Origin: a virus
Length of the DNA: 21,344 nt
Reading direction: 5' to 3' (one strand)
IMG/VR virus record: IMGVR_UViG_3300008120_007368
Coordinates: 1-21,344 of that record
In this document: positions 1 to 21,344 of the stretch, one piece after another
How the letters are laid out: the number at the start of each line of letters is the position of its first letter
Numbering within the stretch: position 1 is the first letter of the stretch
The notes under the pieces: generated by a model
What the model saw: the letters and a program-made list of their open reading frames with translations, nothing else
Database searches by the model: none
What the model was told of the DNA's origin: nothing
Translations under genes and position numbers: made by a program

Positions 1-246
1 GGTCTCAGTGAGATCGAACTGTGACATGATAAAATCCTGCATACGCTTTAAGATCTTAATGAATGATCCGTATGCAGACCTGTCACCCAACTTGTCCATG
101 ATGTTGGACACATCGAACACTCTTCCCTCCCAGAAATCTATTTCGCTAGATTCCCAGCCAATCTCTTTATCTATCTTGTCATAAAATGACAGGCAGAATT
201 CGATCTCTTCTGGAGTAAGGAAGTTATCTTGATAAACTACATTCAT
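1..246 (-). CDS. N-terminal part of a probable 2-oxoglutarate/Fe(II) oxygenase (cut by window edge)
   Basis: The frame is open from an ATG at 246 to the left edge, so about 82 N-terminal residues are visible and the catalytic part lies outside. It begins MNVVYQDNFLTPEEIEFCLS, which resembles the opening of prolyl-hydroxylase-like 2OG oxygenases (an 'xDNFLxxEE' segment followed by a helix). The HxD and distal His ligands cannot be seen, so the family call rests on this opening and on two better-supported oxygenase-like genes in the same window. The start overlaps the stop of the upstream gene by four bases (ATGA), which supports the start and suggests translational coupling. It could instead be an unrelated helical phage protein. 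Confidence 0.5.
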   Translation of the reverse strand, partial: MNVVYQDNFLTPEEIEFCLSFYDKIDKEIGWESSEIDFWEGRVFDVSNIMDKLGDRSAYGSFIKILKRMQDFIMSQFDLTET

Positions 247-1072: not shown

Positions 1073-1642
1073 CTATTTTAAAGCAGGAACTTTCACCGCC
1101 ATGCCCCCGCCGCCTGCTGGAATATCCGTTGGAGTTGGATTAGGCTCCGTTGGCGTTGGTGTTGGCTCAGTCGGATTTGGCGTAGGCTCCGTTGGTGTTG
1201 GAGTCGGTGTTGGTTCCGTTGGTGTTGGCGTTGGAGTTGGTTCCGTTGGAGTCGGTGTTGGTGTTGGCTCCGTTGGAGTGGGACTAGGTGTTGGCTCTGG
1301 AATAACAACCTTACAGTCATTCTTCCAAATCATTTGACCTGTATCGTCCCAGTTTAACCCCAAAAATTCTGATTCTCCAAATGTGAACGGAGGAATAATA
1401 TCCTTTTCGTGATCTCCGTGTCCATTCAAATATTTCTTATCATTAGGATTCTCAATACTTGATGCATCTATTTCTATATTTACATATGGATTTTTATCTG
1501 AAGCGGTGGCGTGGCATATTCTAACCTTGCCGCCACCCGCATTTGCATTGCTATTAAACATGAAAAGTATCGCTCCTACAGTAATAGTAAATATTGCTGC
1601 AATAACGATCCAAATTATTAAGTTTCTGGTATTTTCTGGCAC
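1073..1642 (-). CDS. membrane-anchored surface protein with ICHAT/GHGDH domain and Pro-Thr-rich stalk
   Basis: The GTG start at 1642 has a good AAGGAG site 8 bases upstream. Residues 8-28 form one hydrophobic membrane segment. Residues 39-110 carry RICHATASDKNPYV, later YLNGHGDHEKDIIPPF, a pattern found in actinobacterial cell-surface proteins of unknown function. Residues 114-172 are a stalk of PTPTEPTP-type repeats, and the C-terminus is a Gly-rich patch followed by VKVPALK. The likely topology is N-terminus inside and stalk outside. The stop is TAG, and the same frame continues into the sortase-like core. VKVPAL resembles the first strand of class F sortases, so the two pieces may once have been one sortase. 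Promoter, leader stem-loop and upstream terminator suggest a separate transcription unit. Confidence 0.75.
   Translation of the reverse strand: MPENTRNLIIWIVIAAIFTITVGAILFMFNSNANAGGGKVRICHATASDKNPYVNIEIDASSIENPNDKKYLNGHGDHEKDIIPPFTFGESEFLGLNWDDTGQMIWKNDCKVVIPEPTPSPTPTEPTPTPTPTEPTPTPTPTEPTPTPTPTEPTPNPTEPTPTPTEPNPTPTDIPAGGGGMAVKVPALK
1127..1303 (-). repeat. tandem repeat encoding Pro-Thr-Glu stalk
   Basis: The DNA consists of near-identical 6-12 base units such as GTTGGTGTTGGC and GTTGGAGTC on the plus strand. They encode PTPTEPTP and PTPTPTEPTP repeats in the surface protein. Such tracts readily change length by slippage, so the copy number probably varies between isolates. The regular GTTGG units also create long open frames in other phases that are not genes. 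Confidence 0.85.
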
Positions 1643-5078: not shown

Positions 5079-5530
5079 CAGAAGACTACTTCCTTATGCT
5101 TAGGCTTACAGATATGACACCATTCAAAATCATATACATAGAAATCATCTGGATCAGTATGAATAAACCAGTGTGGGCAGATTCTAGTAATTACGAATAC
5201 TGACCTAACCATTTCCAATCCTTGTTGCCAACCCCTCATCTCATGATCAGTTCTCTTGTGCAGGGCGCATTGTTGACCCGCGCAGGTACTAGAATGATGT
5301 GCGGCTAGGATAATATCAGTATGCTCTAGATGTGCTGATTCTGGTACAAATGGCTTATCGGTAGATACATACAGTGGAATAAAGTCTTCCATAGCGCCGC
5401 CAGCCCTCATATACTCATTTCCACCGTCTACAAAAATTGCCCCACATTCACATTCAACAAAATCGTTGCGGTGGGTGGACTGAATTACATCACCACACTT
5501 GGCGCACTTAGCGGCATTACGAATGATCAT
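5078..5530 (-). CDS. protein with N-terminal zinc ribbon, 150 aa
   Basis: Residues 1-45 form a compact zinc ribbon (C9xxC12 in CAKCGDVI and C27xC29 in ECECG) followed by the RAGG segment that recurs in phage proteins. The rest is a separate domain with CAGQQCALHKRTDHEMRGWQ and a C-terminal HICKPKHKE. It is likely a nucleic-acid or protein adaptor, but the function is unknown. It overlaps the HAD gene by four bases. Confidence 0.75.
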   Translation of the reverse strand: MIIRNAAKCAKCGDVIQSTHRNDFVECECGAIFVDGGNEYMRAGGAMEDFIPLYVSTDKPFVPESAHLEHTDIILAAHHSSTCAGQQCALHKRTDHEMRGWQQGLEMVRSVFVITRICPHWFIHTDPDDFYVYDFEWCHICKPKHKEVVF

Positions 5531-5865
5531 TTATCTTCCCATCCAGGAACGACGGTAGTAGGAATACCTTCCTCCGCCCAAAGTTTAATAATACTAGGAT
5601 TATCATCCCATGCATGAATAACATTATAAGCCTTACGAATAGTGTCAAGCATGTCTTTCTTCACTTCGTAATCTTTCCTGTTGTCCTCGTCACCGCGCAT
5701 CATTAGCATGTCGCTAGGAACATCATGCATGGCTAGCCACCAGGCAGTATGGTTTCTCTGCTTAACCACCCTGCGCTTGGTAGCATCATATTTATTTAGA
5801 TGATGACGAATAGACGACACATCTGCTAGTGTGCCGTCCATGTCGAATATGACTGCGGTTTTCAT
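5527..5865 (-). CDS. HAD-superfamily phosphatase (polynucleotide 3'-phosphatase-like)
   Basis: HAD phosphatases use two aspartates in DxDGT. Here FDMDGTLAD is at residues 7-15 (nucleophile D8, acid/base D10). A later lysine region (VKKDMLDTI) and WDDNPSIIKLW (residues 86-96) match the loop-4 acidic motif of the T4 Pnkp phosphatase domain. At 112 residues it is short, but it keeps the expected motif order. A role in trimming 3' phosphates on damaged DNA or tRNA would fit a phage with tRNAs, but there is no kinase domain. It overlaps both neighbours by four bases. Confidence 0.75.
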   Translation of the reverse strand: MKTAVIFDMDGTLADVSSIRHHLNKYDATKRRVVKQRNHTAWWLAMHDVPSDMLMMRGDEDNRKDYEVKKDMLDTIRKAYNVIHAWDDNPSIIKLWAEEGIPTTVVPGWEDK

Positions 5866-7596: not shown

Positions 7597-7834
7597 ATTT
7601 TATGCCCTCTATCTCGCATCTAACGCCAAAGTTCTGAATCATAGTCCTTACTTGAAGCAAGTACTCCATGACTTGCATACGCTTAGACTCTGAGAACTCC
7701 ATGATATTATCCTCATGGACTGTCAATGCGATATAATTAGGCCTCTTTCTGATATCTAATTTGATACCAGTAAAGGGAGGCTTAACCTCTCGTATAGCCT
7801 TAGCCATCTCTTTTGTGTAGAATACTTGATCCAT
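7589..7834 (-). CDS. hypothetical protein, 81 aa
   Basis: The layout is helix (FYTKEMAKAIREVKPPF), strands (GIKLDIRKRPNYIALTVHED) and a C-terminal helix with SKRMQVMEYLLQVRTMIQNFG. No recognised domain. It overlaps the WhiB gene by 35 bases, from an ATG inside that gene. Confidence 0.75.
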   Translation of the reverse strand: MDQVFYTKEMAKAIREVKPPFTGIKLDIRKRPNYIALTVHEDNIMEFSESKRMQVMEYLLQVRTMIQNFGVRCEIEGIKYV

Positions 7835-8135
7835 GTATTGACTTCAGCCTCTTCCAAATTTCTGGTGTCTTATGAGAATTATACTCTTTATCAACTCTAC
7901 CTAGGTCTAGGTAAACTCCTCCCCAGACCCCGCGCTCTTTATTATTTACACCTTCATTATAGCATTGTTTGGCTACTGGACAGTGTAGACACATCTCATC
8001 AACTTGTGCTGCTAGATGCTTATCTGTTTCATAATCATCATAAAACATATTGATATCTGCATTAATACATGCAGCAAGTTGGTACCACTTTAGATTATCT
8101 GCGTCTAGTCCAAGTTCATCAATTATATTCGACAT
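7800..8135 (-). CDS. WhiB-family iron-sulfur transcription factor
   Basis: WhiB proteins hold a [4Fe-4S] cluster and bind the principal sigma factor to alter promoter choice. They occur only in actinobacteria and their phages. The four ligands are C23, C49, C52 and C58 (AACINAD; MCLHCPVAKQC), followed by the diagnostic GVWGG turn at residues 69-73. Length 111 is typical. The C-terminal basic region (TPEIWKRLKSIHG) may touch DNA. Phage WhiB proteins can act as dominant-negative regulators of host WhiB proteins. This is the strongest evidence for an actinobacterial host. Confidence 0.93.
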   Translation of the reverse strand: MSNIIDELGLDADNLKWYQLAACINADINMFYDDYETDKHLAAQVDEMCLHCPVAKQCYNEGVNNKERGVWGGVYLDLGRVDKEYNSHKTPEIWKRLKSIHGSSILHKRDG

Positions 8136-8355
8136 TTGAAGGAACCTTTACCTTCCAAGTTCCGTCATTCTGTACGGGGAATCGGAAAGAAATGCCCCAC
8201 TGACCGTTCTTAAAAGAACCGTCTTTTGATGTGTATCCTGAAGGGTTAGGAACCCAACGAACAACATCCCATCCATCCCAGGAATACCCACGATGGGAAT
8301 TACTCTCAATAAAGCCGTGAGCCTTATTGTAATCTAGTGTAAGAGTTTTCATCAT
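8119..8355 (-). CDS. hypothetical protein, 78 aa
   Basis: A Trp/Gly-rich protein (RGYSWDGWDVVRWVPNPSGY) that is probably all strand. No family is recognised. It starts inside the 3' end of the small coiled-coil gene (32-base overlap) and overlaps WhiB by 17 bases. The second Met is an equally good start. Confidence 0.7.
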   Translation of the reverse strand: MMKTLTLDYNKAHGFIESNSHRGYSWDGWDVVRWVPNPSGYTSKDGSFKNGQWGISFRFPVQNDGTWKVKVPSNVEYN

Positions 8356-8473
8356 TTGCTTTCTGTAGAATCATTGATTTTTTATATGCGTCTTGCTCAA
8401 GAACTATTCGTATTCTTGCAAGTTCTTCTCTAATACCATCTAGTATTGCTGTAATATTATCTAGATCGCTCAT
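8324..8473 (-). CDS. small helical protein, 49 aa
   Basis: The ATG at 8473 overlaps the deaminase stop in an ATGA junction, and the TAA is at 8326-8324. The sequence begins MSDLDNITAILDGIREELAR and continues as one amphipathic helix with heptads (IRIVLEQDAYKKS), so it is probably a short coiled coil. No function can be assigned. Confidence 0.65.
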   Translation of the reverse strand: MSDLDNITAILDGIREELARIRIVLEQDAYKKSMILQKANDENSYTRLQ

Positions 8474-8845
8474 GTATAAACTACCTTTCGAATACCCGCG
8501 TCGTTAATTGCCTTGTGGCATCTATCGCAAGGGCGCGACAACCTATCCTGCCCCCGCTTATTTACTCTTGCCACATAAAGCGTAGCGCCCTTTGGGTTTC
8601 TCACCTTACGCAAAGCGTCAATCTCTGCGTGTACAGAACAGTGTGTCTTGATATGTTCTGATGAAACAACGGTGGGGTGATTTCGCTTCTTATTAATTCC
8701 AACACTAATCACACTACCGCCTCTAACAATTACTGCGCCGTGCTTCATTCGACATTCAGAAGACTGGGCCACGTTTAGCGCTAGGTCCAAGTACTTCTGG
8801 TCACGCCGCGATAGCCGAGAAAAGATCTCCTTTTGGCATCATCAT
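8470..8845 (-). CDS. cytidine/deoxycytidylate deaminase, 5' end in a shifted frame
   Basis: The zinc site is complete: HAE at residues 54-56 (CSVHAEIDAL) and PCDRC (88-91) in the main frame, where E56 is the proton shuttle. The main frame has only a TTG at 8790 with no ribosome site, yet in-frame coding continues upstream (SRLSRRDQKY). An ATG series at 8845-8837 overlaps the upstream stop (TGATG), has AAAGGG before it and encodes MPKGDLF before meeting TGA. Removing one T in the TTTT at 8820-8823 joins both frames. The enzyme likely makes dUMP for dTMP or controls nucleotide pools. The extent given spans both frames; the minimum frame is 8470-8790. Confidence 0.8.
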
Positions 8846-9234
8846 CACCCTTTCACAATCTCCGTAGGAATTTCCATTGCACTACTTATATTAGCAAGGG
8901 AAGTGGTTTTCTTGCAAGAATCCCTGACAAAAAATATCGCCTTATCAATATTAAGGCTAGCAAGATCATACATCTGCACGGCAGAACTATCTGAAATTTT
9001 CTTAGGCCTAAACAACTGCTCATCGATAGAGTAGCCCTTCTGCTTAAGTAGTCTCTCTACCTTACCAATATATTCAGTAACCATATTTTCCGCTGGGGTA
9101 GATGCCGTATGAACAAAAGTAATCTTTTTATCGTTGGGATTTGTCGATACCCACTTGTCTAGTATTACTGTCATCTTACGCATTATTTCATTATAGTCTA
9201 CCCAGTTACGGCTACCGCCGACAAGGATTCTCAT
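8845..9234 (-). CDS. DUF2493 (SLOG/YspA-like) protein, 129 aa
   Basis: The opening MRILVGGSRNWVDYNEIMRK is the Rossmann-like first strand and GSR loop of DUF2493, a SLOG-superfamily nucleotide-binding family. HTASTPAENMVTEYIG replaces the usual 'GGAxGAD' motif, and a late strand reads KAIFFVRD. SLOG proteins bind nucleotides or NAD-derived signals, often in phage or defence settings, but the ligand here is unknown. It has a GGAG ribosome site and shares a TGATG stop/start with the deaminase. Confidence 0.75.
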   Translation of the reverse strand: MRILVGGSRNWVDYNEIMRKMTVILDKWVSTNPNDKKITFVHTASTPAENMVTEYIGKVERLLKQKGYSIDEQLFRPKKISDSSAVQMYDLASLNIDKAIFFVRDSCKKTTSLANISSAMEIPTEIVKG

Positions 9235-9251
9235 TACATTTCTCCGATTAA

Positions 9252-9899
9252 TTACTCAGCAGGGGCTTCTTCAGAAACCTCTGGCGCTACAGTTTCTTCT
9301 ACTGGAGCATCTACAACTGGCTCTTCTTCTGAGGCTGGCTCTTCAGGCACAACTTCTTCAACAACTGCTTCCTCAATTACTTCTTCTACAGTTTCTTCTT
9401 CAACTGTATTATCTTCAATTGCTGGTGCTGGTTCTTCAACAACTGCTGGAGTCTCAGCAACTACCTCTTCAACAATTGGCTCATCTAGTGGCGCGTCATT
9501 TTCTTCTGTAAGATCTACCAGTGCAGGCTCATCTGCTGGGAAGAAAACTCCAGACCATATTGACTTATTCATTCTGTCATTCATTATAGAATCTCTCTTC
9601 TGTTTAGACCAGGATGCTCCTGCATCCCCGCCCCAAAGATCCCAGGCCACTCTGCCTGGGCTTGGGAAACCTTCTTCTCCTGAACTAAAACCCTTAGCCT
9701 TCTTATCTACTTCATGACGGGAGAAGAAACTATACATTCTCAATACCGTAGAAGCAGACAGAGACTCTTTATTGGCTAGTTGATTCGCTCTAGCCAGACC
9801 TACTCTTGTACCACCGCGCTTGCCCTCTTTCTTCCATTTCAGCGCTCTACGGGCAGCCGAAGCCATACCATCAGTAGGTGCATAAGTTTTTTCAGCCAT
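9252..9899 (-). CDS. conserved phage domain with long acidic Glu/Val/Pro tail, 215 aa
   Basis: Residues 5-118 carry a conserved phage domain (MASAARRALKWKKEGKRGGT, later SFFSRHEVDKKAKGF and GRVAWDLWGGDAGASW). It appears alone or fused to head-maturation proteins in other phages; its function is not settled. Residues 121-215 are low complexity, almost only E, V, P and A, and probably disordered. A TGGTATAAT box ends 5 bases before the ATG and there is no Shine-Dalgarno site, so a leaderless transcript is likely. The acidic tail could act as a DNA mimic or a scaffold; that is inference. Confidence 0.75.
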   Translation of the reverse strand: MAEKTYAPTDGMASAARRALKWKKEGKRGGTRVGLARANQLANKESLSASTVLRMYSFFSRHEVDKKAKGFSSGEEGFPSPGRVAWDLWGGDAGASWSKQKRDSIMNDRMNKSIWSGVFFPADEPALVDLTEENDAPLDEPIVEEVVAETPAVVEEPAPAIEDNTVEEETVEEVIEEAVVEEVVPEEPASEEEPVVDAPVEETVAPEVSEEAPAE

Positions 9900-9904
9900 A
9901 CTTA

Positions 9905-9913
9905 ATTATACCA
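9905..9913 (-). promoter_or_regulatory. extended -10 box, leaderless start for the 9252-9899 gene
   Basis: The minus strand reads TGG-TATAAT with 5 bases to the ATG at 9899 and no ribosome binding site between. Transcription would start at or next to the A of ATG. The same TGNTATAAT-N5-6-ATG layout recurs at 12752 and 16532. Confidence 0.6.
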
Positions 9914-10433
9914 TGCCCATTTTTGTCACATAGTCATACATTACAATGCCGCTAGCCGTACCAACATTAAGACTTCTTACGCTGCCAAGTTGGGGAATGG
10001 AGACTATATCATCAGCCATTCCAAGAGCGAAAGGAGAGATACCTCTTTGCTCTTCTCCAAACATGATGAAGGAATCCTTGCGCCACTCATACTGATTAAG
10101 AGGGATCGCGCCTGGAACATTATCAATTGCCACCCACCTCATCTGTCTGATATCACTATTGTTAAGATAAAGGTCATCAAGTGACGGAGAATGCTTAAGG
10201 TGGTTGTAGTGTTGAGTTCCTACTGCGCCGCGCTTATCCCACTTCTTATTTCCAATGATCCAGCACTCCTTAGCCATAAATGCATTGGCATTTCTAATTC
10301 CAGTAGCCTTGTTAAAATCACCAGATAGATTCTCAAAGGCCACAGCGTAGGAAAGCCTGCGGGTATCAAGGTCGGCCTTTATCTGATCTGTTTCCCACTC
10401 TTTATAGTAGTCAATGACGTTTTTGCCTGTCAT
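9906..10433 (-). CDS. SpoU/TrmH-family RNA 2'-O-methyltransferase, 175 aa
   Basis: SPOUT methyltransferases use a trefoil knot to bind SAM and methylate ribose 2'-OH in tRNA or rRNA. Motif 1 lies in NKATGIRNANAFMAKECWI (residues 41-59), motif 2 in MFGEEQRGIS and motif 3 in PQLGSVRSLNVGTASGIVMY (147-166); the SLNV knot segment is diagnostic. At 175 residues it is a minimal single-domain form. In a phage with many tRNAs, modifying its own tRNAs or host tRNA is a reasonable guess. The start has AGGAG 5 bases upstream. Confidence 0.88.
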   Translation of the reverse strand: MTGKNVIDYYKEWETDQIKADLDTRRLSYAVAFENLSGDFNKATGIRNANAFMAKECWIIGNKKWDKRGAVGTQHYNHLKHSPSLDDLYLNNSDIRQMRWVAIDNVPGAIPLNQYEWRKDSFIMFGEEQRGISPFALGMADDIVSIPQLGSVRSLNVGTASGIVMYDYVTKMGMV

Positions 10434-10441
10434 TATATCTC

Positions 10442-11146
10442 CTAGAGATTAGTATCTTCTATTGTCTTATTTACATTATACCTATTCTTCTTGTGCTTTT
10501 TCCAGAAATTTTTTCTAGAAACAAAGCCGGGTATAACATATCTATGTGGGCCTGGACCTGGAGAATTCACCCCATGCCTCCAGTTTTCGCTCGTAGGGAA
10601 TACTAATATAGAATTTTTTGGAGGTCGCAACTCTATTTTTTGATTAACAAAAAATACTTCTCCGTTGGTATATTCATCATTCAAATAGAAAACTACGGCA
10701 TACTCTAGAGATGGGTCCGTATGATTATCTACATGATCTTTTAACGGCACTCCCTCGTACTGTCTTTGTATTGTGCCGCATCCATTAAATTGAATATCTT
10801 TTCTGAAGTCAAACAACTCTTGGCATCTTTTTTTTAAGATGTTGGCAATTTTGTGATCATTTATTCTTAAATTTTTATCATACCAATTATCTGTTATTTC
10901 ATATAGACCCTGGCTAACTAAACTGTCTATATCATCTGTGCCAAACTTAAGTTGCGCGAGTTTTTTGGCACCAATCATGTACTCCTTGCACCATTCTTCA
11001 TGATTAGCATTGATTGCTAATTCTACTAATTCTTCAGACTCGCTCTCTTTAATAAAATTTTTTATTAAAAATATTCTATAGTCTAACTCTTCTACCTCGT
11101 ATTCAAGGTTTTCTATATAACTCTTAGTTAATATTTTTTCTGACAT
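10442..11146 (-). CDS. 2-oxoglutarate/Fe(II) dioxygenase, prolyl-4-hydroxylase-like, 234 aa
   Basis: This family hydroxylates proline or other residues using Fe(II), O2 and 2-oxoglutarate. The double-stranded beta-helix is clear: YEGVPLKDHVDNHTD holds HxD (H138, D140), then AVVFYLNDEYTNGEVFF, KNSILVFP, and the distal H191 (WRHGV) and R202 (HRYVIPGF) for 2OG binding. Residues 1-60 are a helical, acidic N-terminal extension; the C-terminus is very basic (KKHKKNRYN). Substrate is unknown; phage structural proteins are plausible. It has a GGAG site and overlaps the upstream gene by one base. Confidence 0.85.
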   Translation of the reverse strand: MSEKILTKSYIENLEYEVEELDYRIFLIKNFIKESESEELVELAINANHEEWCKEYMIGAKKLAQLKFGTDDIDSLVSQGLYEITDNWYDKNLRINDHKIANILKKRCQELFDFRKDIQFNGCGTIQRQYEGVPLKDHVDNHTDPSLEYAVVFYLNDEYTNGEVFFVNQKIELRPPKNSILVFPTSENWRHGVNSPGPGPHRYVIPGFVSRKNFWKKHKKNRYNVNKTIEDTNL

Positions 11147-11457
11147 TACTCAAACTCCTCAGGAATTATTACTCCATTTTCAATTAGGTAGTCCCTGCCC
11201 TGCTCAGTTATCTTAAATTTTGGAGTTAGATTTGTGTCGTATTCTATAGTGATAAATCCTAATGCATAAAGATTCATAAGTTCAGCATTCATTTCCTCCA
11301 TCATTGCATCATACAATTCTGGGAATATATGCTTCATCCTTTCAAAGTCGAACACGAATGTTCTTTCCCCATCTTCATTCATGCCCACCCATACAAGAAC
11401 TTTTTCTTCTTCAAGGTAACTCATGAAATGCTCTACCTCTTCATCACTAAATTCCAT
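11146..11457 (-). CDS. hypothetical protein with C-terminal winged-helix-like segment, 103 aa
   Basis: The N-terminus is acidic and helical (FSDEEVEHFMSYLEEEKVLV). The C-terminal half (LMNLYALGFITIEYDTN, KFKITEQGRDYLIENG) looks like the last helix and wing of a winged-helix domain, but the rest of the fold is not clear. The ATG at 11457 is one base after the discriminator of tRNA-Thr, and no ribosome site is present, so its mRNA may be produced by tRNA processing. Confidence 0.7.
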   Translation of the reverse strand: MEFSDEEVEHFMSYLEEEKVLVWVGMNEDGERTFVFDFERMKHIFPELYDAMMEEMNAELMNLYALGFITIEYDTNLTPKFKITEQGRDYLIENGVIIPEEFE

Positions 11458-11458
11458 G

Positions 11459-11531
11459 AGCCACAGATCGGATTCGAACCGATGACTTTTCGCTTACAAG
11501 GCGAATACTCTACCAACTGAGTTACTGTGGC
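11459..11531 (-). tRNA. tRNA-Thr(UGU)
   Basis: The cloverleaf has acceptor GCCACAG/CTGTGGC, a D-arm, anticodon loop CTTGTAA (anticodon TGT) on a TTCGC/GCGAA stem and a T-arm with TTCGAAT. CCA is not encoded. It reads ACA codons. The next gene's ATG begins one base after its 3' end. Confidence 0.95.
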
Positions 11532-11584
11532 GACCGTAGACTGTTGCCGCAATTTTATTTGCGTCTACGATATAAGTGTATCAT

Positions 11585-12081
11585 TTACTGTTTTACAGGT
11601 GTACATTTCTTAGGGAACAAGGACCATCCTGTATTGAATGGATAAATTACCCATGAGTAGGTTAGTCCAGATCCCCATAAAGAATAATACATTCCTGCAT
11701 TTTCATACCAGGAGTCATTCTTAAATGAATAACCATACTTTGCCAAGTACCCAGGGCTCCAGTAAAATATCTGCTAGATTCATCTAATGATTCATGCTTA
11801 GATTCGCGCCAGGTAATTGCCCAGGCCCCTCTTAACATTCCAGGTCTATTAAAACCTGCCTTGAACAGTATCTTTGCCTGCTTATCATTACAATTAGAGG
11901 GCAGTGTCCAATTTCTATCTGTTATTGCCCTTCTTTCTTGTGTGTCAGCGGTGGCAAAGTTTCCTGTACCTTCCGCCAAAGGCGTAGACTTAGCATACGC
12001 CAGGTTTGGAGAGATTAGTACTGTAGATAATACTACTGCTATTGATACTAATCCAGCACCAAATCGGTTTATTGTCGTCAT
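11585..12081 (-). CDS. secreted lysozyme/transglycosylase-like protein, frame broken
   Basis: The ATG at 12081 has a strong AAGGAGGTC site and a sigma70-type promoter upstream. Residues 1-30 form a signal peptide (AVVLSTVLISPNLAYA, then cleavage). The lysozyme-like core shows GMLRGAWAITWRESKHESLD, where Glu in WRES fits the catalytic acid, and a following TGALGTWQ. The frame then runs into out-of-frame sequence and stops at 11662. The -1 frame gives a sensible continuation (KYGYSFKNDSWYENAGMYYS, then LWGSGLTYSWVIYPF) to a TAA at 11587. One base is missing or a -1 shift occurs between 11773 and 11662, best near 11725-11770. The intact product would be about 165 residues and is probably involved in cell-wall degradation. 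Confidence 0.7.
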
Positions 12082-12113
12082 ATTGACCTCCTTGTGGCGG
12101 CAACATGAATTCT

Positions 12114-12142
12114 ATTATACAGAAATTTTATGCGACGTTCAA
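12114..12142 (-). promoter_or_regulatory. sigma70-type promoter for the lysozyme-like gene
   Basis: TTGAAC (12142-12137) and TATAAT (12119-12114) are separated by exactly 17 bases on the minus strand. The -35 lies inside the end of the preceding 39-residue gene. The start of the lysozyme-like gene is 33 bases downstream with its own ribosome site. Confidence 0.75.
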
Positions 12143-12247
12143 GGATTCGGGGTAATTTACTATTTCTATCATGTTATCGTATATGACAATGTGTGGTTTA
12201 AAGTAGTAGTCTTCACCATTTTTTACCAGGCAGTAGAAGGTGAACAT
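12128..12247 (-). CDS. small hypothetical protein, 39 aa
   Basis: A 39-codon frame begins MFTFYCLVKNGEDYYFKPHI and ends NYPESLNVA. Its ATG at 12247 shares one base with the stop of the upstream gene (TAATG), the same coupling seen elsewhere. It is probably strand-rich; no family is recognised. The -35 of the lysozyme promoter is within its last codons. Confidence 0.6.
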   Translation of the reverse strand: MFTFYCLVKNGEDYYFKPHIVIYDNMIEIVNYPESLNVA

Positions 12248-12372
12248 TATTTCTTGCCGCCCTTGCGTCTTAATGGAGACTTGCCAATCTTAATCTTTCC
12301 GTCAGAGTGGTCGGGATTTTTTATTCCCCCGCCTCCGCCACGAATTGTTTCGGTTGTAATAACATTAAACAT
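12247..12372 (-). CDS. small basic Gly-rich protein, 41 aa
   Basis: A 41-codon frame begins MFNVITTETIRGGGGGIKNP and ends GKSPLRRKGGKK. Its net charge is strongly positive. It overlaps the upstream stop by eight bases and shares one base with the next gene. No known family; the composition suggests a nucleic-acid-binding peptide. Confidence 0.6.
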   Translation of the reverse strand: MFNVITTETIRGGGGGIKNPDHSDGKIKIGKSPLRRKGGKK

Positions 12373-12745
12373 TTTTAAAGAAAGATCCGCCCCAGAATTT
12401 ATCTGACATTAACATATCGTCATCATCATTCATATCATCATCTTCATCATCTATACCTGAAGTATTTACATATCCATCTGGAATTGCTGCTAATCGACAC
12501 TTTCCATTTTCTTCAACTTCATAAGATAGTATCTTGCATCCAAGGGCTCCTCCATCTTTCTCAAAGTGCATAGAGCAGTTTCCACACCTCACCCCGATGC
12601 TTGCGTCTTCATTTTCTCCTGCTGGTTCATATCCAACCCAAATACTTGAAGTACCTTTATCAAATGGGCCGTATGTCTCTGCTATAGAGACTAGTGCATC
12701 ATGGTATGCTTTTTCTTCTGTAGTTAATTCATCATAAAGTTCCAT
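12365..12745 (-). CDS. four-cysteine (possibly Fe-S) protein with acidic tail, 126 aa
   Basis: Cysteines at 54, 57, 70 and 83 (VRCGNCSMHFEKDGGALGCK, then GKCRLAAIPDG) form a metal-site pattern. It resembles small cysteine-rich domains often found near phage head genes, sometimes compared with high-potential iron-sulfur proteins. Residues 98-113 are almost all Asp/Glu, an acidic linker before WGGSFF. No ribosome site is present; a TGATATAAT box ends 6 bases before the ATG, so it is a leaderless candidate. It is placed 18 bases after tRNA-Tyr. Confidence 0.75.
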   Translation of the reverse strand: MELYDELTTEEKAYHDALVSIAETYGPFDKGTSSIWVGYEPAGENEDASIGVRCGNCSMHFEKDGGALGCKILSYEVEENGKCRLAAIPDGYVNTSGIDDEDDDMNDDDDMLMSDKFWGGSFFKNV

Positions 12746-12751
12746 AATACT

Positions 12752-12760
12752 ATTATATCA
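12752..12760 (-). promoter_or_regulatory. extended -10 box, leaderless start for the 12365-12745 gene
   Basis: The minus strand reads TGA-TATAAT, then 6 bases, then ATG at 12745. It lies directly after the tRNA-Tyr 3' end. No Shine-Dalgarno sequence fits between the box and the ATG. Confidence 0.6.
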
Positions 12761-12763
12761 TTG

Positions 12764-12843
12764 TGCCAGATGTTGGAATCGAACCAACCATGCCTGAGGC
12801 GACGGTTTTACAGACCGCTTCCCCACCTTGGGGACTATCTGGC
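12764..12843 (-). tRNA. tRNA-Tyr(GUA)
   Basis: This is an 80-base type II tRNA with the long variable arm usual for bacterial tRNA-Tyr. Acceptor GCCAGAT/ATCTGGC is perfect, the anticodon loop is CTGTAAA (GTA) on GCGGT/ACCGT, and the T-arm has TTCGATT. Positions 8-9 read AG rather than the usual UA. No CCA is encoded. It follows tRNA-Asn with one base between. Confidence 0.92.
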
Positions 12844-12844
12844 T

Positions 12845-12919
12845 TGGCTGGCGTGGAAGGACTCGAACCTTCAACCTTTCGATTAACAGTCGAATACTCT
12901 GCCATTGAGTTACACGCCA
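12845..12919 (-). tRNA. tRNA-Asn(GUU)
   Basis: Acceptor TGGCGTG/CACGCCA, D-stem ACTC/GAGT, anticodon loop CTGTTAA (GTT) on TTCGA/TCGAA, and T-arm with TTCGAGT. The discriminator is G and CCA is encoded, the only one of the eight tRNAs here to carry it. Four bases separate it from the stop of the upstream glycosyltransferase gene. Confidence 0.95.
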
Positions 12920-12923
12920 TTCG

Positions 12924-13856
12924 TTATATTATTTTTTCCTTACAGGCTAAATTATATACTACATCATATAGAGCAGACCAGACGTTGTTTGAAGAAAATG
13001 ACTCATCTAGTATATTTTTTACAGAATAATACAACTCATCCTCATCTTTAATGCTTAAACTATCCATTAAATATTTCAAAGTCATGCCAGAATCTAACTT
13101 ATATTTATTAAGACTATCAATTGATTCTGCTCCGCGTGGACCTAAATACTTTCCGGTAACTACATCTAATAAAAATAGAGCATCATATATAGTTTTTTCA
13201 ACATTAAAGTCTATCTTCCAGTCATCTTCTGGCCTTATGCTATATTTAGATAAATGATACATTGGATTATAATTTATTGCAACTAAATTGTATCCTCTAC
13301 TTGCATATCTAATAGATAGAAGTGGTTCTTCTGCGATAAAAAATAATTCTTTATCGAACGGAATGTCCTTAACAATACTCGCGTACCCGAACATAAAGTG
13401 GCAACTAAGTGAATGGTGAATCTCGTAACTATTATCTACAGATATATTTTCTGCCTTAGCAACTAGTCCATCTATTTTTAGTTTCCAGGGTGGCAGTCTG
13501 GCTGTTGTTTGATCTACTGCTAGTTTGCCATCTTCTATTGTTGCCCAATGTAGCGGCTGAGATATTAATGTTTTATTCCCTAAGTCATTAACTATTTGTG
13601 AATACCTATTTATTAATTGATTATCCCAATTATCTGTAAATATTGTATGAGAATCTATTCCCAAAAAGAAGTCCTCGTCTTCAACGAATTCTACTAGACG
13701 GCTTCTTGCAGCGCCCACCCCTATTGGATTTTTAGTTAAGATTTTTTCTATTCTTATAGATTCTGAATTATTTATATCTGAAAAGTTTTCATCGGTACTT
13801 TGCTCAAGTATCGCAAATTTTATTTTATTTACACCGCTAGAATTTTGTATAGCACG
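12924..13856 (-). CDS. GlcNAc-type glycosyltransferase (PF11397-like), N-terminus missing
   Basis: PF11397 enzymes move GlcNAc from UDP-GlcNAc to protein hydroxyls; the Dictyostelium member modifies hydroxyproline on Skp1. Family blocks are clear: VGAARSRLVEF, FFLGIDSHTIFTDNWD (the DSH nucleotide/metal site), CHFMFGYASIVKDIPFDKEL, FIAEEPLLSIRYASRGYNL and a late YHLSKYS. The first possible start is GTG at 13718, but the frame stays open to 13856 with family-like sequence (AIQNSSGVNKIKFAILEQS). No start codon exists there and the usual first strand with SYRD is absent. The open part overlaps the end of the upstream oxygenase gene in the -1 frame, so it is a truncated gene or part of a shifted fusion. 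Confidence 0.78.
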   Translation of the reverse strand, partial: RAIQNSSGVNKIKFAILEQSTDENFSDINNSESIRIEKILTKNPIGVGAARSRLVEFVEDEDFFLGIDSHTIFTDNWDNQLINRYSQIVNDLGNKTLISQPLHWATIEDGKLAVDQTTARLPPWKLKIDGLVAKAENISVDNSYEIHHSLSCHFMFGYASIVKDIPFDKELFFIAEEPLLSIRYASRGYNLVAINYNPMYHLSKYSIRPEDDWKIDFNVEKTIYDALFLLDVVTGKYLGPRGAESIDSLNKYKLDSGMTLKYLMDSLSIKDEDELYYSVKNILDESFSSNNVWSALYDVVYNLACKEKII

Positions 13857-14560
13857 TCATCTGAATAGCATTTATATAATGGTGCTACTTGATGATAAAA
13901 ATTACCAGAGAATAAAAACATGCTTCCTTCTCTATAAGGTACTACTTCTGGTTCTGGGATATCTTTATCTTTATAGAAAGAATTATTTTTTATATCTAAT
14001 TCAAACTGGGTATCTGATTCAAGATGCTTCAGTAATCCGTCTGACCATATACTTAACCCGCTTCCATTTCTTGGCAACTTTAATGAAAGGGTAAAGGATA
14101 AGTTTTCGCTAGTGTCTACTTCTGAATACTTATTCTTTAAAAGATCTTCATGGTAGTTATAGATATGATCTCTATGCCTTTTATTTATGTAGGTGTCTGG
14201 AAAATTCATATCAATTAGCCTAGACTCTACATCCCTGTCCCCCATGATATGGAATCCAGGGTGTGCTAAACAATCTTCTAATTCTGATGGGCCTATATAA
14301 CTATTTAGTTCTTTTAGTATTTTTTCATAAAGATCTGAAAAATTTTCTAAAAGAATTTTGTTGTAATAGTTTTTTATCTTATAGTAGATTTTTTTATCTT
14401 TTCTAGCATCTGCATAAGAAGTAGCACCCATTACATAATAGGGCATATTAATATCACCATCAGTCCAACTTCTCCATTCATGACGTAAATAAAATAGCCT
14501 TGAAAGGTAATCATCAGTTTCTGATGGTGACAGTATTTCAATAAGTTTTGGATCTACCAC
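13829..14560 (-). CDS. 2-oxoglutarate/Fe(II) oxygenase-like protein, 243 aa
   Basis: The C-terminal half has a probable double-stranded beta-helix. HPGFHIMGD precedes RHRDHIYNYHED (candidate HxD ligands H129/D131 or H137/D139), then LSFTLSLKLPRNGSGLSIW, a GSMFLFSGNFYHQVAP strand with distal H223, and a last strand DVLYKILAV. The spacing fits 2OG oxygenases, but no clear 2OG-binding Arg is seen, so it is less certain than the 10442-11146 enzyme. The GTG start is one base after tRNA-Arg, with AGGGG in the tRNA acceptor as a possible weak ribosome site. It directly precedes the GlcNAc-type glycosyltransferase. Confidence 0.7.
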   Translation of the reverse strand: MVDPKLIEILSPSETDDYLSRLFYLRHEWRSWTDGDINMPYYVMGATSYADARKDKKIYYKIKNYYNKILLENFSDLYEKILKELNSYIGPSELEDCLAHPGFHIMGDRDVESRLIDMNFPDTYINKRHRDHIYNYHEDLLKNKYSEVDTSENLSFTLSLKLPRNGSGLSIWSDGLLKHLESDTQFELDIKNNSFYKDKDIPEPEVVPYREGSMFLFSGNFYHQVAPLYKCYSDDVLYKILAV

Positions 14561-14561
14561 G

Positions 14562-14634
14562 CGCCCCTGGCAGGATTCGAACCTGCGACTTACTGATTAG
14601 AAGTCAGTCACTCTATCCTCTGAGTTACAGGGGC
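14562..14634 (-). tRNA. tRNA-Arg(UCU)
   Basis: Acceptor GCCCCTG/CAGGGGC, D-stem, anticodon loop CTTCTAA (TCT) on ACTGA/TCAGT, T-arm with TTCGAAT. It reads AGA. No CCA encoded. Its 5' ten bases are also the last codons and stop of the upstream protein gene, and its 3' end is one base before a GTG start. Confidence 0.95.
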
Positions 14635-15287: not shown

Positions 15288-15289
15288 AG

Positions 15290-15360
15290 AGCGGCTGACC
15301 AGAATCGAACTGGCGATAACTGCTTGGAAGGCAGATGTGTTACCTCTACACCACAGCCGC
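15290..15360 (-). tRNA. tRNA-Gly(UCC)
   Basis: Acceptor GCGGCTG/CAGCCGC, anticodon loop CTTCCAA (TCC) on TCTGC/GCAGT (last pair weak), T-arm with TTCGATT. It reads GGA. No CCA encoded. The next gene's ATG is two bases downstream. Confidence 0.94.
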
Positions 15361-16831: not shown

Positions 16832-16832
16832 G

Positions 16833-16906
16833 TCGGGATAGGAGGATTTGAACCTCCGGCCTTCCGCTCCCAAAGCGGACGCGCTACCAAACTGCGCCAT
16901 ATCCCG
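16833..16906 (-). tRNA. tRNA-Pro(UGG)
   Basis: Acceptor CGGGATA/TATCCCG, anticodon loop TTTGGGA (TGG) on TCCGC/GCGGA, T-arm with TTCAAAT. It reads CCA, the main codon class needed for the Pro-rich stalk protein. CCA end not encoded. One base separates it from the next ATG. Confidence 0.95.
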
Positions 16907-16909
16907 TAA

Positions 16910-17037
16910 GTTACAGACAGCGGCGAACCCATTTGCACGAAAGACGCTAGAAACGAATTCAACGCTTTCAACCGACAGACTCGTTATAACGGGATATATT
17001 TATGTAACTAAACCATCCTAAGTTTGCTGTCTGTAAC
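16910..17037 (-). ncRNA. putative structured RNA between tRNA-Ile and tRNA-Pro
   Basis: A perfect 12-base inverted repeat (GTTACAGACAGC / GCTGTCTGTAAC) encloses 104 bases that hold no gene. It fills nearly the whole gap between two tRNAs (2 bases on one side, 3 on the other). Inside are smaller hairpins, such as CGTTATAACG and GAAAG..CTTTC, giving a possible multi-branch fold. It does not form a tRNA and lacks the ends of tmRNA. It could be a small RNA released by tRNA processing enzymes, a maturation signal, or the remnant of a lost tRNA or element. Confidence 0.4.
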
Positions 17038-17039
17038 CG

Positions 17040-17113
17040 TAGGGCGGGTGGGACTTGAACCCACGACCTTTACCTTATAAGAGTACTGCGCTCACCGACT
17101 GCGCCACCGCCCC
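17040..17113 (-). tRNA. tRNA-Ile(UAU)
   Basis: Acceptor GGGGCGG/CCGCCCT (first pair G-U), D-arm, anticodon loop CTTATAA (TAT), T-stem GTGGG/CCCAC with TTCAAGT. The anticodon stem is weak (a G-U and one mismatch). UAU reads AUA directly, unlike the usual bacterial tRNA-Ile with lysidine-modified CAU. No CCA encoded. Confidence 0.88.
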
Positions 17114-20241: not shown

Positions 20242-20892
20242 CTATAGACTTCTATAAAGTTCTTTTATCCCACTTACCGTTCCAGCATCTATGTATTCAC
20301 CTTCACATGGGATATGACCTACTGTATATCCTAACCTAATAAAACTATTTAATTGAACTCCTGGATGGGGGAGGGCAGGGTCAATTAGTTTGCCCGATAT
20401 ATTAAATTTTAATGCTCCCCACATTCTATCAAATTCGCATCCAGGAACTTTATCTATTACTTCTATAACATCATTTCCGTTATAGTTTATTTGCCCCACC
20501 CGACCCTTTATATCTTCATTGCAGGGCCATGATGCTAAAGTTATATCATACTCAGATTCAGAAATTGTTTTATAGAAATTTTGATTAGTATGACTTATAA
20601 ATGTATCTGGCATTCCAATTATAATAGATGTTTCTGTACCATCAGTCATTTTAGTAATTGCATCTGACATTGTTGATGGCTCAATAATATTTATTTTTGC
20701 ATCAATATTAAATTTTTCAACAATGGGTAGCCAGGATGATTTTGTAGATATTCTAATTTCATCACACACTTCAGCCATATTCTTAACATGCCACTCCAAT
20801 AAACATATGTCATCACTTATTGGTAAACAAAATTTAGGTATTCCTTTTACTCGGCTTGCAGAGCCAGAGGCAGGAAGAAGTCCTACTATCAT
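20242..20892 (-). CDS. sugar nucleotidyltransferase, 216 aa
   Basis: These enzymes join NTP and sugar-1-phosphate to give an activated nucleotide sugar. The N-terminus IVGLLPASGSASRVKGIPKF is a nucleotidyltransferase fold opening with the 'AxGxxxR..xxPK' signature in modified form. IIIGMPDTFI gives the acidic metal site, WPCNEDIKGRVGQI the middle, and YIDAGTVSGIKELY the late 'D.GT' motif. ATG at 20892 overlaps the upstream stop (ATGA) and is preferred over GTG at 20901. It is coupled to the GT2 gene, so both probably serve one glycosylation pathway. Confidence 0.82.
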   Translation of the reverse strand: MIVGLLPASGSASRVKGIPKFCLPISDDICLLEWHVKNMAEVCDEIRISTKSSWLPIVEKFNIDAKINIIEPSTMSDAITKMTDGTETSIIIGMPDTFISHTNQNFYKTISESEYDITLASWPCNEDIKGRVGQINYNGNDVIEVIDKVPGCEFDRMWGALKFNISGKLIDPALPHPGVQLNSFIRLGYTVGHIPCEGEYIDAGTVSGIKELYRSL

Positions 20893-21344
20893 CTCATCCA
20901 CTCATGCTTTCTTCTTAGATCTATGTCCCAGCCACGACATTCATAATTTTTACTATCTACTTTACTTTTATAATACTTTTCATTTTCTACGAATGTCTCA
21001 TGATTTCTTGTTAATAATTTATTATCACTTTTAATAGTTTGCGATCCATCATTATCATTTACTGGAATATCTGAAGATGTTATTTTAAATCCAGACAACT
21101 CTATCCTGTCTGCAAAATCGTTGTCTTCGAAATATATCGGGTAGAAATACTCATCAAAGAGTCCGACGTTCCTAATAATATTCTCTCCGACTGAGAAAAA
21201 TCCAAACCCAGAATTACTAAGAACTACTTTATCTTCTCCACTTTCCTTATACATTCTTTCAAGGCTGTCTTCCATGTAGATATTATCCGCAGAAGAAAAT
21301 ACCCAAAATTTTTCATGTGGATATAGTTTAATTCCAAGGTTCCA
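20889..21344 (-). CDS. GT2-type glycosyltransferase, C-terminal part (cut by window edge)
   Basis: The frame is open to the right edge and stops at 20889. FWVFSSADNIYMEDSLER holds the DxD-like 'SADN' site, VVLSNSGFGFFSVGENII the acceptor strand, and GLFDEYFYPIYFEDNDFADR the catalytic ED motif with helix. The order is that of GT2 family transferases. The N-terminal nucleotide-binding strand lies beyond the window. It is coupled to the nucleotidyltransferase. Likely targets are phage structural proteins or host-surface glycans; the sequence does not say which. Confidence 0.82.
   Translation of the reverse strand, partial: WNLGIKLYPHEKFWVFSSADNIYMEDSLERMYKESGEDKVVLSNSGFGFFSVGENIIRNVGLFDEYFYPIYFEDNDFADRIELSGFKITSSDIPVNDNDGSQTIKSDNKLLTRNHETFVENEKYYKSKVDSKNYECRGWDIDLRRKHEWMR

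What the first reader, a model, noticed from the sequence alone, without database searches (positions are those of the whole stretch)
10442..14560. Hydroxylase plus GlcNAc-transferase pair resembles the Skp1 hydroxyproline glycosylation pathway
A prolyl-hydroxylase-like enzyme (10442-11146), a second oxygenase-like protein (13829-14560) and a PF11397-like glycosyltransferase directly downstream of it occur in one operon. In Dictyostelium, a prolyl hydroxylase and a PF11397 enzyme (Gnt1) act in series on Skp1. The phage also has a nucleotidyltransferase, a GT2 enzyme, a probable third oxygenase at 1-246, and a protein with long Pro-Thr repeats that could be a target. A phage that hydroxylates and then glycosylates protein would be new to me. 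Family calls are from motifs; the pathway is inference.
Basis: partly seen in the sequence, partly recalled or inferred. Interest (0 to 1): 0.75.

Follow-up and report, generated by a model that had tools for sequence, protein, structure and literature searches.

The report
Phage oxygenase and sugar-transferase gene cassette
Freshwater phages related to this fragment carry, side by side, a gene for an oxygen-inserting enzyme and a gene for a sugar-adding enzyme that probably act one after the other on the same target; in this particular sequence the join between the two genes has lost about 126 bases, most likely through an assembly error.

Summary
The genes are real: 10442-11146 is a PF13640 2OG oxygenase, 13829-14560 a second 2OG oxygenase (OX2), 12927-13856 a PF11397 (GT60-like) glycosyltransferase, 1-246 the start of a third oxygenase. 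In this contig both members of the claimed pair are cut: 126 nt present in syntenic sister phages are missing at 13855, removing OX2's 2OG-binding Arg and the transferase's start and first strand. Two similar blunt losses lie elsewhere; a 99.97%-identical contig retains one of those segments, so an assembly artefact is likely. Sister phages have intact, abutting OX2-GT60 genes in an exchangeable slot; one replaces OX2 with an unrelated 2OG oxygenase, two add a carbamoyltransferase. Elsewhere OX2 relatives sit beside fucosyltransferase-like genes. OX2 is WelO5/SadA-like, not a prolyl hydroxylase, and the P4H-like gene persists in sisters without GT60. So the Skp1-like pairing as drawn is not supported, but hydroxylate-then-glycosylate coupling is plausible. 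Independently, 22 of 57 bacterial GT60 loci have a P4H-like gene nearby, and two gammaproteobacterial proteins fuse the domains. Substrate unknown; protein favoured, untested.

The parts
13829..14560 (-). OX2: 2OG-Fe(II) oxygenase of the phrog_24927 / WelO5-SadA-like type; starts with GTG directly after tRNA-Arg; C-terminus with the 2OG-binding Arg missing in this contig
   Evidence: phrog_24927 E 1.2e-22; alignment with HxD, distal H and DRR(I/V/L)T in relatives; fold of the intact 56-58% identical relative L105; truncation
12927..13856 (-). PF11397 (GT60-like) glycosyltransferase, open reading frame without a start; first available start is GTG at 13718; lacks strand 1 and half of helix A
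   Evidence: PF11397 E 4.5e-17, profile positions 121-271 of 352; frame opens after a stop at 13857-13859; relatives begin about 20 residues earlier; fold of intact L105 relative
13855..13856 (.). site at which 126 nt are missing relative to the syntenic phages L105/L179/L181
   Evidence: 158 nt between conserved codons in relatives, 32 nt here; alignment gap of 126 nt
10442..11146 (-). P4H-like 2OG oxygenase (PF13640), core gene of the lineage; intact
   Evidence: PF13640 E 2.8e-9; 90% identical in L105/L179, 51-69% in other sisters irrespective of GT60
1..246 (-). N-terminus of a third 2OG oxygenase (PF13640 type), cut by the contig end
   Evidence: 82% identical to L179 13321-13893, which matches PF13640 at E 1.5e-14
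14561..14634 (-). tRNA-Arg that bounds the variable slot upstream; OX2 starts at the next base
   Evidence: ARAGORN
12365..12745 (-). conserved gene bounding the variable slot downstream
   Evidence: 53-69% identical in syntenic relatives
20242..20901 (-). sugar-1-phosphate nucleotidyltransferase-like protein (motif only); possible sugar donor supply
   Evidence: N-terminal GLLPASGSASRVKGIPK motif in the ORF; no Pfam or PHROG match; conserved in relatives
20889..21344 (-). C-terminal part of a glycosyltransferase, cut by the contig end
   Evidence: phrog_29879 galactosyl transferase E 2.2e-24, phrog_2456 E 9.7e-6
11737..11738 (.). second site with a blunt loss (118 nt) that breaks the conserved gene 11662-12081
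   Evidence: full-length 204-aa relatives in L102 and L184
5758..5759 (.). third site with a blunt loss (123 nt) in the HAD-like gene 5527-5865; the segment is present in the 99.97% identical contig L182

Best explanation
The slot between tRNA-Arg and gene 12365-12745 holds an exchangeable modification cassette: a 2OG oxygenase followed at once by a GT60-like glycosyltransferase, in some sisters also by a NodU/Nol-type O-carbamoyltransferase. Most likely the oxygenase puts a hydroxyl on an acceptor and the transferase places a sugar from a nucleotide donor on that hydroxyl (further capped with a carbamoyl group where that gene is present). The acceptor is most likely a phage or host protein side chain, but this step is inference. 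In this contig both genes are incomplete because 126 nt are missing at their join; the loss is probably an assembly artefact, so the real phage probably encodes both enzymes complete. Shown: gene identities, the missing 126 nt relative to sisters, recurrent adjacency, replacement of the oxygenase by an unrelated one, presence of carbamoyltransferases. Inferred: order of action, sugar, acceptor, that the loss is an artefact.
For: Intact, abutting OX2-GT60 pairs in L105/L179/L181 (58% identical to the window's) and in L108/L185-188/L196-200 (32-35%), while TerL is 92-94% identical. The stop of OX2 and the likely start of GT60 overlap by one base in L105 and are two bases apart in L108. L194 has OX2-GT60-carbamoyltransferase; L184 has a different 2OG oxygenase (PF13759), two tRNAs, GT60 and carbamoyltransferase in the same slot. 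OX2 relatives in unrelated phages are directly followed by fucosyltransferase-like genes (O-FucT-like in L010, L011, L202, L204, L213; GT11-like in L205, L211). Bacteria: 22 of 57 GT60 loci have a P4H-like gene within 4 genes (20 hits among 202 ORFs within 2 genes, 0 among 332 ORFs further away); two proteins of about 1,200 aa fuse HPAT-like, PF11397 and PF13640 domains. Artefact: a 99.97% identical contig contains one of the three missing segments; a near-identical contig, L099, lacks 122 nt that the window has; no microhomology at either of those two sites.
Against: No biochemical evidence for any substrate. OX2's nearest solved structures act on small molecules or N-substituted amino acids. 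In OX2-bearing cyanophages no GT is adjacent. L102 carries OX2 without GT60. Other phages' PF11397 genes are mostly surrounded by glycan and sugar genes, not oxygenases. The lineage carries many oxygenases (7 and 9 PF13640 genes in two records of about 104 kb), so some adjacency is expected by chance. The bacterial counts are not independent: 14 of the 22 are one SAR86-type arrangement. No identical contig covers the 126-nt site, so a true deletion is not excluded there.
Confidence: 0.5

Rival explanations
1. The cassette modifies a host surface glycan, a lipid carrier or a small molecule: the oxygenase and the transferase act on a carbohydrate or lipid, changing receptors or blocking superinfection.
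For: OX2 folds like WelO5/SadA, which act on small molecules. GT60 structural matches include TarP, a teichoic-acid GlcNAc transferase, beside polypeptide GalNAc transferases. Carbamoyltransferases and methyltransferases at the slot and sugar genes around other phage GT60s are typical of glycan decoration. Rapid exchange of the slot fits surface variation.
Against: No transmembrane or export gene was identified beside the cassette. The PF11397 member characterised in the literature (Gnt1) acts on protein hydroxyproline (prior knowledge; PMC3515798, PMC11570480 for the pathway). Bacterial fusions join PF11397 with a P4H-like domain and an HPAT-like domain.
Confidence: 0.25
2. The two genes are independent auxiliary genes that share an insertion hotspot between tRNA genes; adjacency carries no functional meaning.
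For: The slot is hypervariable: L109/L110 hold only a methyltransferase-like gene and L102 only OX2. These phages are full of oxygenases.
Against: Every GT60 found in this slot is preceded by an oxygenase, once of an unrelated family (L184); OX2 is followed by GTs of several families in unrelated phages; coupled or abutting reading frames.
Confidence: 0.2
3. Skp1-type pathway: the P4H-like enzyme at 10442-11146 hydroxylates proline and the GT60-like enzyme glycosylates it.
For: Both families are present; P4H-like genes do neighbour GT60 in bacteria.
Against: The P4H-like gene is retained by sisters that lack GT60 and is not adjacent to it here. The Pro-Thr protein is not conserved.
Confidence: 0.1
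4. DNA hypermodification: a base is hydroxylated and then glycosylated.
For: Known in phages for other enzyme families (prior knowledge). XacN1 also pairs GT60 with a carbamoyltransferase.
Against: No Tet/JBP match over the cut-off in nine related records; the fold is WelO5/SadA-like.
Confidence: 0.06
5. The pair is a real pseudogene remnant in this phage: a true 126-nt deletion inactivated both genes.
For: The sequence as given lacks 126 nt at the join; no identical contig covers the site.
Against: Three blunt losses of 118-126 nt, all in conserved genes; one is absent from a 99.97% identical contig, and a fourth loss of 122 nt affects the near-identical contig L099. Neither frame has accumulated other stops.
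Confidence: 0.15

Closest known systems
Skp1 prolyl hydroxylation/glycosylation pathway (PhyA and Gnt1) of Dictyostelium and Toxoplasma (PMC3515798, PMC11570480, PMC7864055)
   Same: A 2OG oxygenase plus a PF11397 glycosyltransferase; a P4H-like gene is also in the genome.
   Different: The adjacent oxygenase is WelO5/SadA-like, not a PHD-type prolyl hydroxylase; the P4H-like gene is unlinked; acceptor and sugar unknown; no evidence of a Skp1-like target.
Mimivirus collagen lysyl hydroxylase and glucosyltransferases (PMC9546862, PMC9614988)
   Same: A virus that encodes both hydroxylation and glycosylation of an acceptor.
   Different: Other enzyme families; no collagen-like Gly-X-Y protein seen in the window's ORF list.
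WelO5 halogenase / SadA amino-acid dioxygenase family (PDB 5iqu, 3w20)
   Same: Fold and metal-binding pattern.
   Different: OX2 keeps the Asp of HxD, so it should hydroxylate rather than halogenate; sequence identity about 15%; substrate unknown.
Cyanophage protein family phrog_24927 (P-HM1, P-HM2, MED4-213)
   Same: Homologous to OX2, about 30% identical.
   Different: Not next to a glycosyltransferase in those cyanophages.
XacN1 / RAS14 jumbo-phage GT60-like gene
   Same: PF11397-type transferase; in XacN1 followed by an annotated carbamoyltransferase, as in L184 and L194.
   Different: No adjacent oxygenase was identified there.

Membership tests
2OG-Fe(II) oxygenase, PF13640 (10442-11146) | Profile match over the curated cut-off with HxD...H...R/K | tested here: met
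   38.3 bits vs cut-off 27; HVD...H...R in the sequence
Prolyl 4-hydroxylase activity (10442-11146) | Hydroxylation of prolyl residues | not testable with these tools
   PDB sequence search finds only weak matches to bacterial P4H (E 0.26)
2OG oxygenase fold (OX2, 13829-14560) | Double-stranded beta-helix fold | tested here: met
   On the intact relative L105 (pLDDT 84): WelO5 E 5.4e-10, TM 0.62
2OG oxygenase, active site (OX2) | HxD and distal His | tested here: met
   HRD and FYHQ in the window, conserved across relatives
2OG oxygenase, active site (OX2) | Arg/Lys binding 2-oxoglutarate after the distal His | tested here: not met
   Missing in the window copy; present as DRR(I/V/L)T or similar in the relatives, intact sisters included
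PF11397 / GT60 | Profile match over the curated cut-off | tested here: met
   63 bits vs cut-off 21
PF11397 / GT60 | Complete GT-A domain including N-terminal strand 1 | tested here: not met
   Missing in the window; present in L105, L108, L184, L194
PF11397 / GT60 | UDP-GlcNAc donor and hydroxyproline acceptor | not testable with these tools
   Needs biochemistry
Skp1-type pathway | Prolyl hydroxylase gene linked to or co-inherited with the GT60 gene | tested here: not met
   P4H-like gene present without GT60 in L102, L109, L110
Skp1-type pathway | Skp1 or comparable protein substrate | not tested
   No target identified; the Pro-Thr protein is absent from L179
DNA hypermodification (TET/JBP type) | Tet_JBP domain over the cut-off | tested here: not met
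   0 of 9 related records over the cut-off

The most novel reading that the evidence does not exclude
Phages carry exchangeable cassettes that hydroxylate protein side chains and then glycosylate (and sometimes carbamoylate) them, using GT60-like or fucosyltransferase-like enzymes; and bacterial P4H-like/GT60 pairs and fusions, some with an HPAT-like domain, are a prokaryotic hydroxyproline-glycosylation pathway related to the eukaryotic Skp1 pathway.
Probability: 0.3. Interest if true: 0.85.

Novelty: new variant of a known kind. Interest (0 to 1): 0.6.

Why it matters
If right, it would show phages making their own attachment points for sugars on proteins, a two-step modification known mainly from eukaryotes and giant viruses, and it names intact phage pairs and bacterial fusions in which the idea can be tested directly. 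It also gives a concrete genomic hint that the hydroxylase-GT60 partnership exists widely in bacteria. On the practical side, it shows that this contig should not be used for cloning these two genes: segments of about 120 nt are missing in several places.

Tried and rejected
1) Close relatives of the window's OX2 and GT by single-protein scans of IMG/VR: none; relatives came only through alignments and through TerL and the P4H-like gene. 2) Programmed frameshift or fusion of OX2 and GT: rejected, because sisters have two separate genes and 126 nt more. 3) A resemblance of the OX2 tail CYSDDVLYKI to the GT motif SYRDPEL: dismissed; the spacing does not fit. 4) General association of phage PF11397 genes with PF13640 oxygenases: tested and not found. 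5) The P4H-like gene as partner of GT60: rejected by distribution. 6) Pro-Thr protein as a conserved target: rejected. 7) TET/JBP-type DNA modification: no match over the cut-off. 8) PDB sequence searches with the GT profile gave nothing, with the OX2 profile only weak WelO5 matches.
Full report
What the window is. The window is one whole IMG/VR record of 21,344 bases, with its genes on the minus strand and eight tRNA genes. TerL is closest to Streptomyces phages of about 130 kb (58-62% identity), and a WhiB-like protein is encoded at 7800-8135 (recognised from the sequence), so the host is probably an actinobacterium.

Checking the genes. 10442-11146 matches PF13640 over the cut-off. The ORF 12924-13718 matches PF11397 strongly, but only from profile position 121 of 352. 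13829-14560 has no significant Pfam match but belongs to phrog_24927, with relatives in Prochlorococcus phages and other virus contigs. The 1-246 ORF is the N-terminus of a PF13640 oxygenase, as the 82% identical, full-length protein of L179 shows.

The pair is broken in this contig. The OX2 relatives aligned end in an R(I/V/L)T(L/V/M)Q-type strand with the 2OG-binding Arg about 13 residues after the distal His; the window protein ends before it. The transferase relatives begin about 20 residues further upstream with an IFVSIASYRD-type strand; the window frame opens after a stop codon with RAIQNSSG. In the syntenic phages L105, L179 and L181 the two anchor points are 158 nt apart, in the window 32 nt: 126 nt are missing. 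An alignment of window and relatives shows two further large losses in the window, 118 nt at 11738 (breaking gene 11662-12081, 204 aa in L102 and L184) and 123 nt at 5758 (breaking a HAD-like gene). Contig L182, 99.97% identical to the window in the piece beside that site, contains the 123 nt; the near-identical contig L099 conversely lacks 122 nt that the window has, including most of tRNA-Ile. Neither of these two segments has microhomology at its ends. I conclude that losses of about 120 nt are probably assembly artefacts in these contigs; for the OX2-GT join this is inference, since no identical contig covers it.

What the intact enzymes are. An AlphaFold2 model of the intact L105 OX2 (56-58% identical to the window's; pLDDT 84) matches WelO5 best, the top hit being its G166D variant, then SadA. 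HxD and the distal His are conserved, so hydroxylation is more likely than halogenation. The L105 transferase model (pLDDT 90) is a GT-A fold closest to polypeptide GalNAc-transferases and TarP. Strand 1 (residues 3-11) and half of helix A (16-25) are what the window copy lacks.

The slot. Between tRNA-Arg and the gene at 12365-12745, sister phages with 92-94% identical TerL carry different contents: OX2-GT60 (L105, L179, L181; and, at only 32-35% identity to the window, L108, L185-188, L196-200), OX2-GT60-carbamoyltransferase (L194), a PF13759 oxygenase with GT60 and carbamoyltransferase (L184), OX2 alone (L102/L201), or a methyltransferase-like gene (L109/L110). So the cassette is exchanged while its surroundings are kept. 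In every case with GT60 a 2OG oxygenase precedes it, once from another oxygenase family. The P4H-like gene, by contrast, is present in every sister covering that region whatever the slot holds. I therefore take OX2, not the P4H-like enzyme, as the partner of GT60.

Wider comparisons. OX2 relatives in other phages are directly followed by O-FucT-like genes (L010, L011, L202, L204, L213) or GT11-like genes (L205 and L211 by profile search; L206, L209, L210, L212 and L203 have the same layout), but not in cyanophages. Phage PF11397 genes as a whole are not linked to oxygenases: 4 of 41 distinct records have any PF13640 gene, no locally built oxygenase profile hits within 4 genes, and the neighbours are mostly sugar and glycan genes. 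In bacteria the picture differs: of 57 GT60 loci, 22 have a P4H-like gene within four genes, 14 of them one divergent SAR86-type arrangement; 20 hits fall among 202 ORFs within two genes of GT60, 0 among 332 further away (not corrected for relatedness). Pfam confirms PF13640 in all twelve of these neighbours that were scanned. Two gammaproteobacterial proteins of about 1,200 aa fuse HPAT-like, PF11397 and PF13640 domains.

Interpretation. The best reading is a cassette that hydroxylates and then glycosylates one acceptor. Shown: family and fold assignments, adjacency, replacement, the missing 126 nt. Inferred: serial action, sugar donor, acceptor type. A protein acceptor is favoured because the known PF11397 enzyme Gnt1 acts on hydroxyproline (prior knowledge; pathway in PMC3515798 and PMC11570480) and because of the bacterial fusions; a surface glycan or small molecule is the main rival because of OX2's WelO5/SadA-like fold.

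Known or not. Phage oxygenases resembling the prolyl hydroxylase EGLN3 are already noted as widespread (PMC12774648). Viral hydroxylation plus glycosylation is known for Mimivirus (PMC9546862). My searches of the held open-access library found no description of a phage or bacterial PF11397-oxygenase pairing; subscription papers were not searched. I rate it a new variant of a known kind.

Noticed in passing
window tRNA-Pro 16832-16906, tRNA-Arg 14561-14634, tRNA-Thr 11458-11531 (and tRNA-Gly 15289-15360); also L105, L108, L102, L110, L184, L194: The start codon of the next gene often follows the last base of a tRNA gene with no gap (ATG or GTG at +0, sometimes +1 to +3), in several sister phages and for different genes. 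tRNA 3' processing could create leaderless messages.
   Followed up: partly
window 13855, 11738, 5758; L099 at window 16989-17110: Blunt losses of 118-126 nt in conserved genes or tRNA genes of two near-identical contigs; similar size and, at the two sites checked, no microhomology suggest a recurrent assembly artefact.
   Followed up: yes
L269 379-3978; L278 300-3851 (Gammaproteobacteria MAGs): Single proteins of about 1,200 aa combine HPAT-like (hydroxyproline O-arabinosyltransferase), PF11397 and PF13640 domains, with another GT60 gene nearby.
   Followed up: partly
SAR86-type loci, e.g. L249, L252, L254, L255, L260, L276: Conserved divergent pair of a P4H-like PF13640 gene and a GT60 gene, followed by a 138-aa gene that is MazG-like in L249.
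   Followed up: partly
L190 604-1314 and 3118-9233: A phage contig with six PF13640-type oxygenase genes and a collagen-like Gly-X-Y protein; the oxygenases could act on it.
   Followed up: no
records behind L184 (104,844 bp) and L110 (103,779 bp): 7 and 9 PF13640 oxygenase genes in one phage record each.
   Followed up: no
L002 (XacN1) 7707-11424; L184 3604-6263; L194 1625-4453; L075; L077: GT60-like genes followed directly or after one gene by a Nol/NodU-type carbamoyltransferase in unrelated phages, suggesting a carbamoylated sugar.
   Followed up: partly
window 1073-1642: Membrane-anchor-like N-terminus and long Pro-Thr repeats; absent from L179, so specific to this phage or its close kin.
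   Followed up: partly
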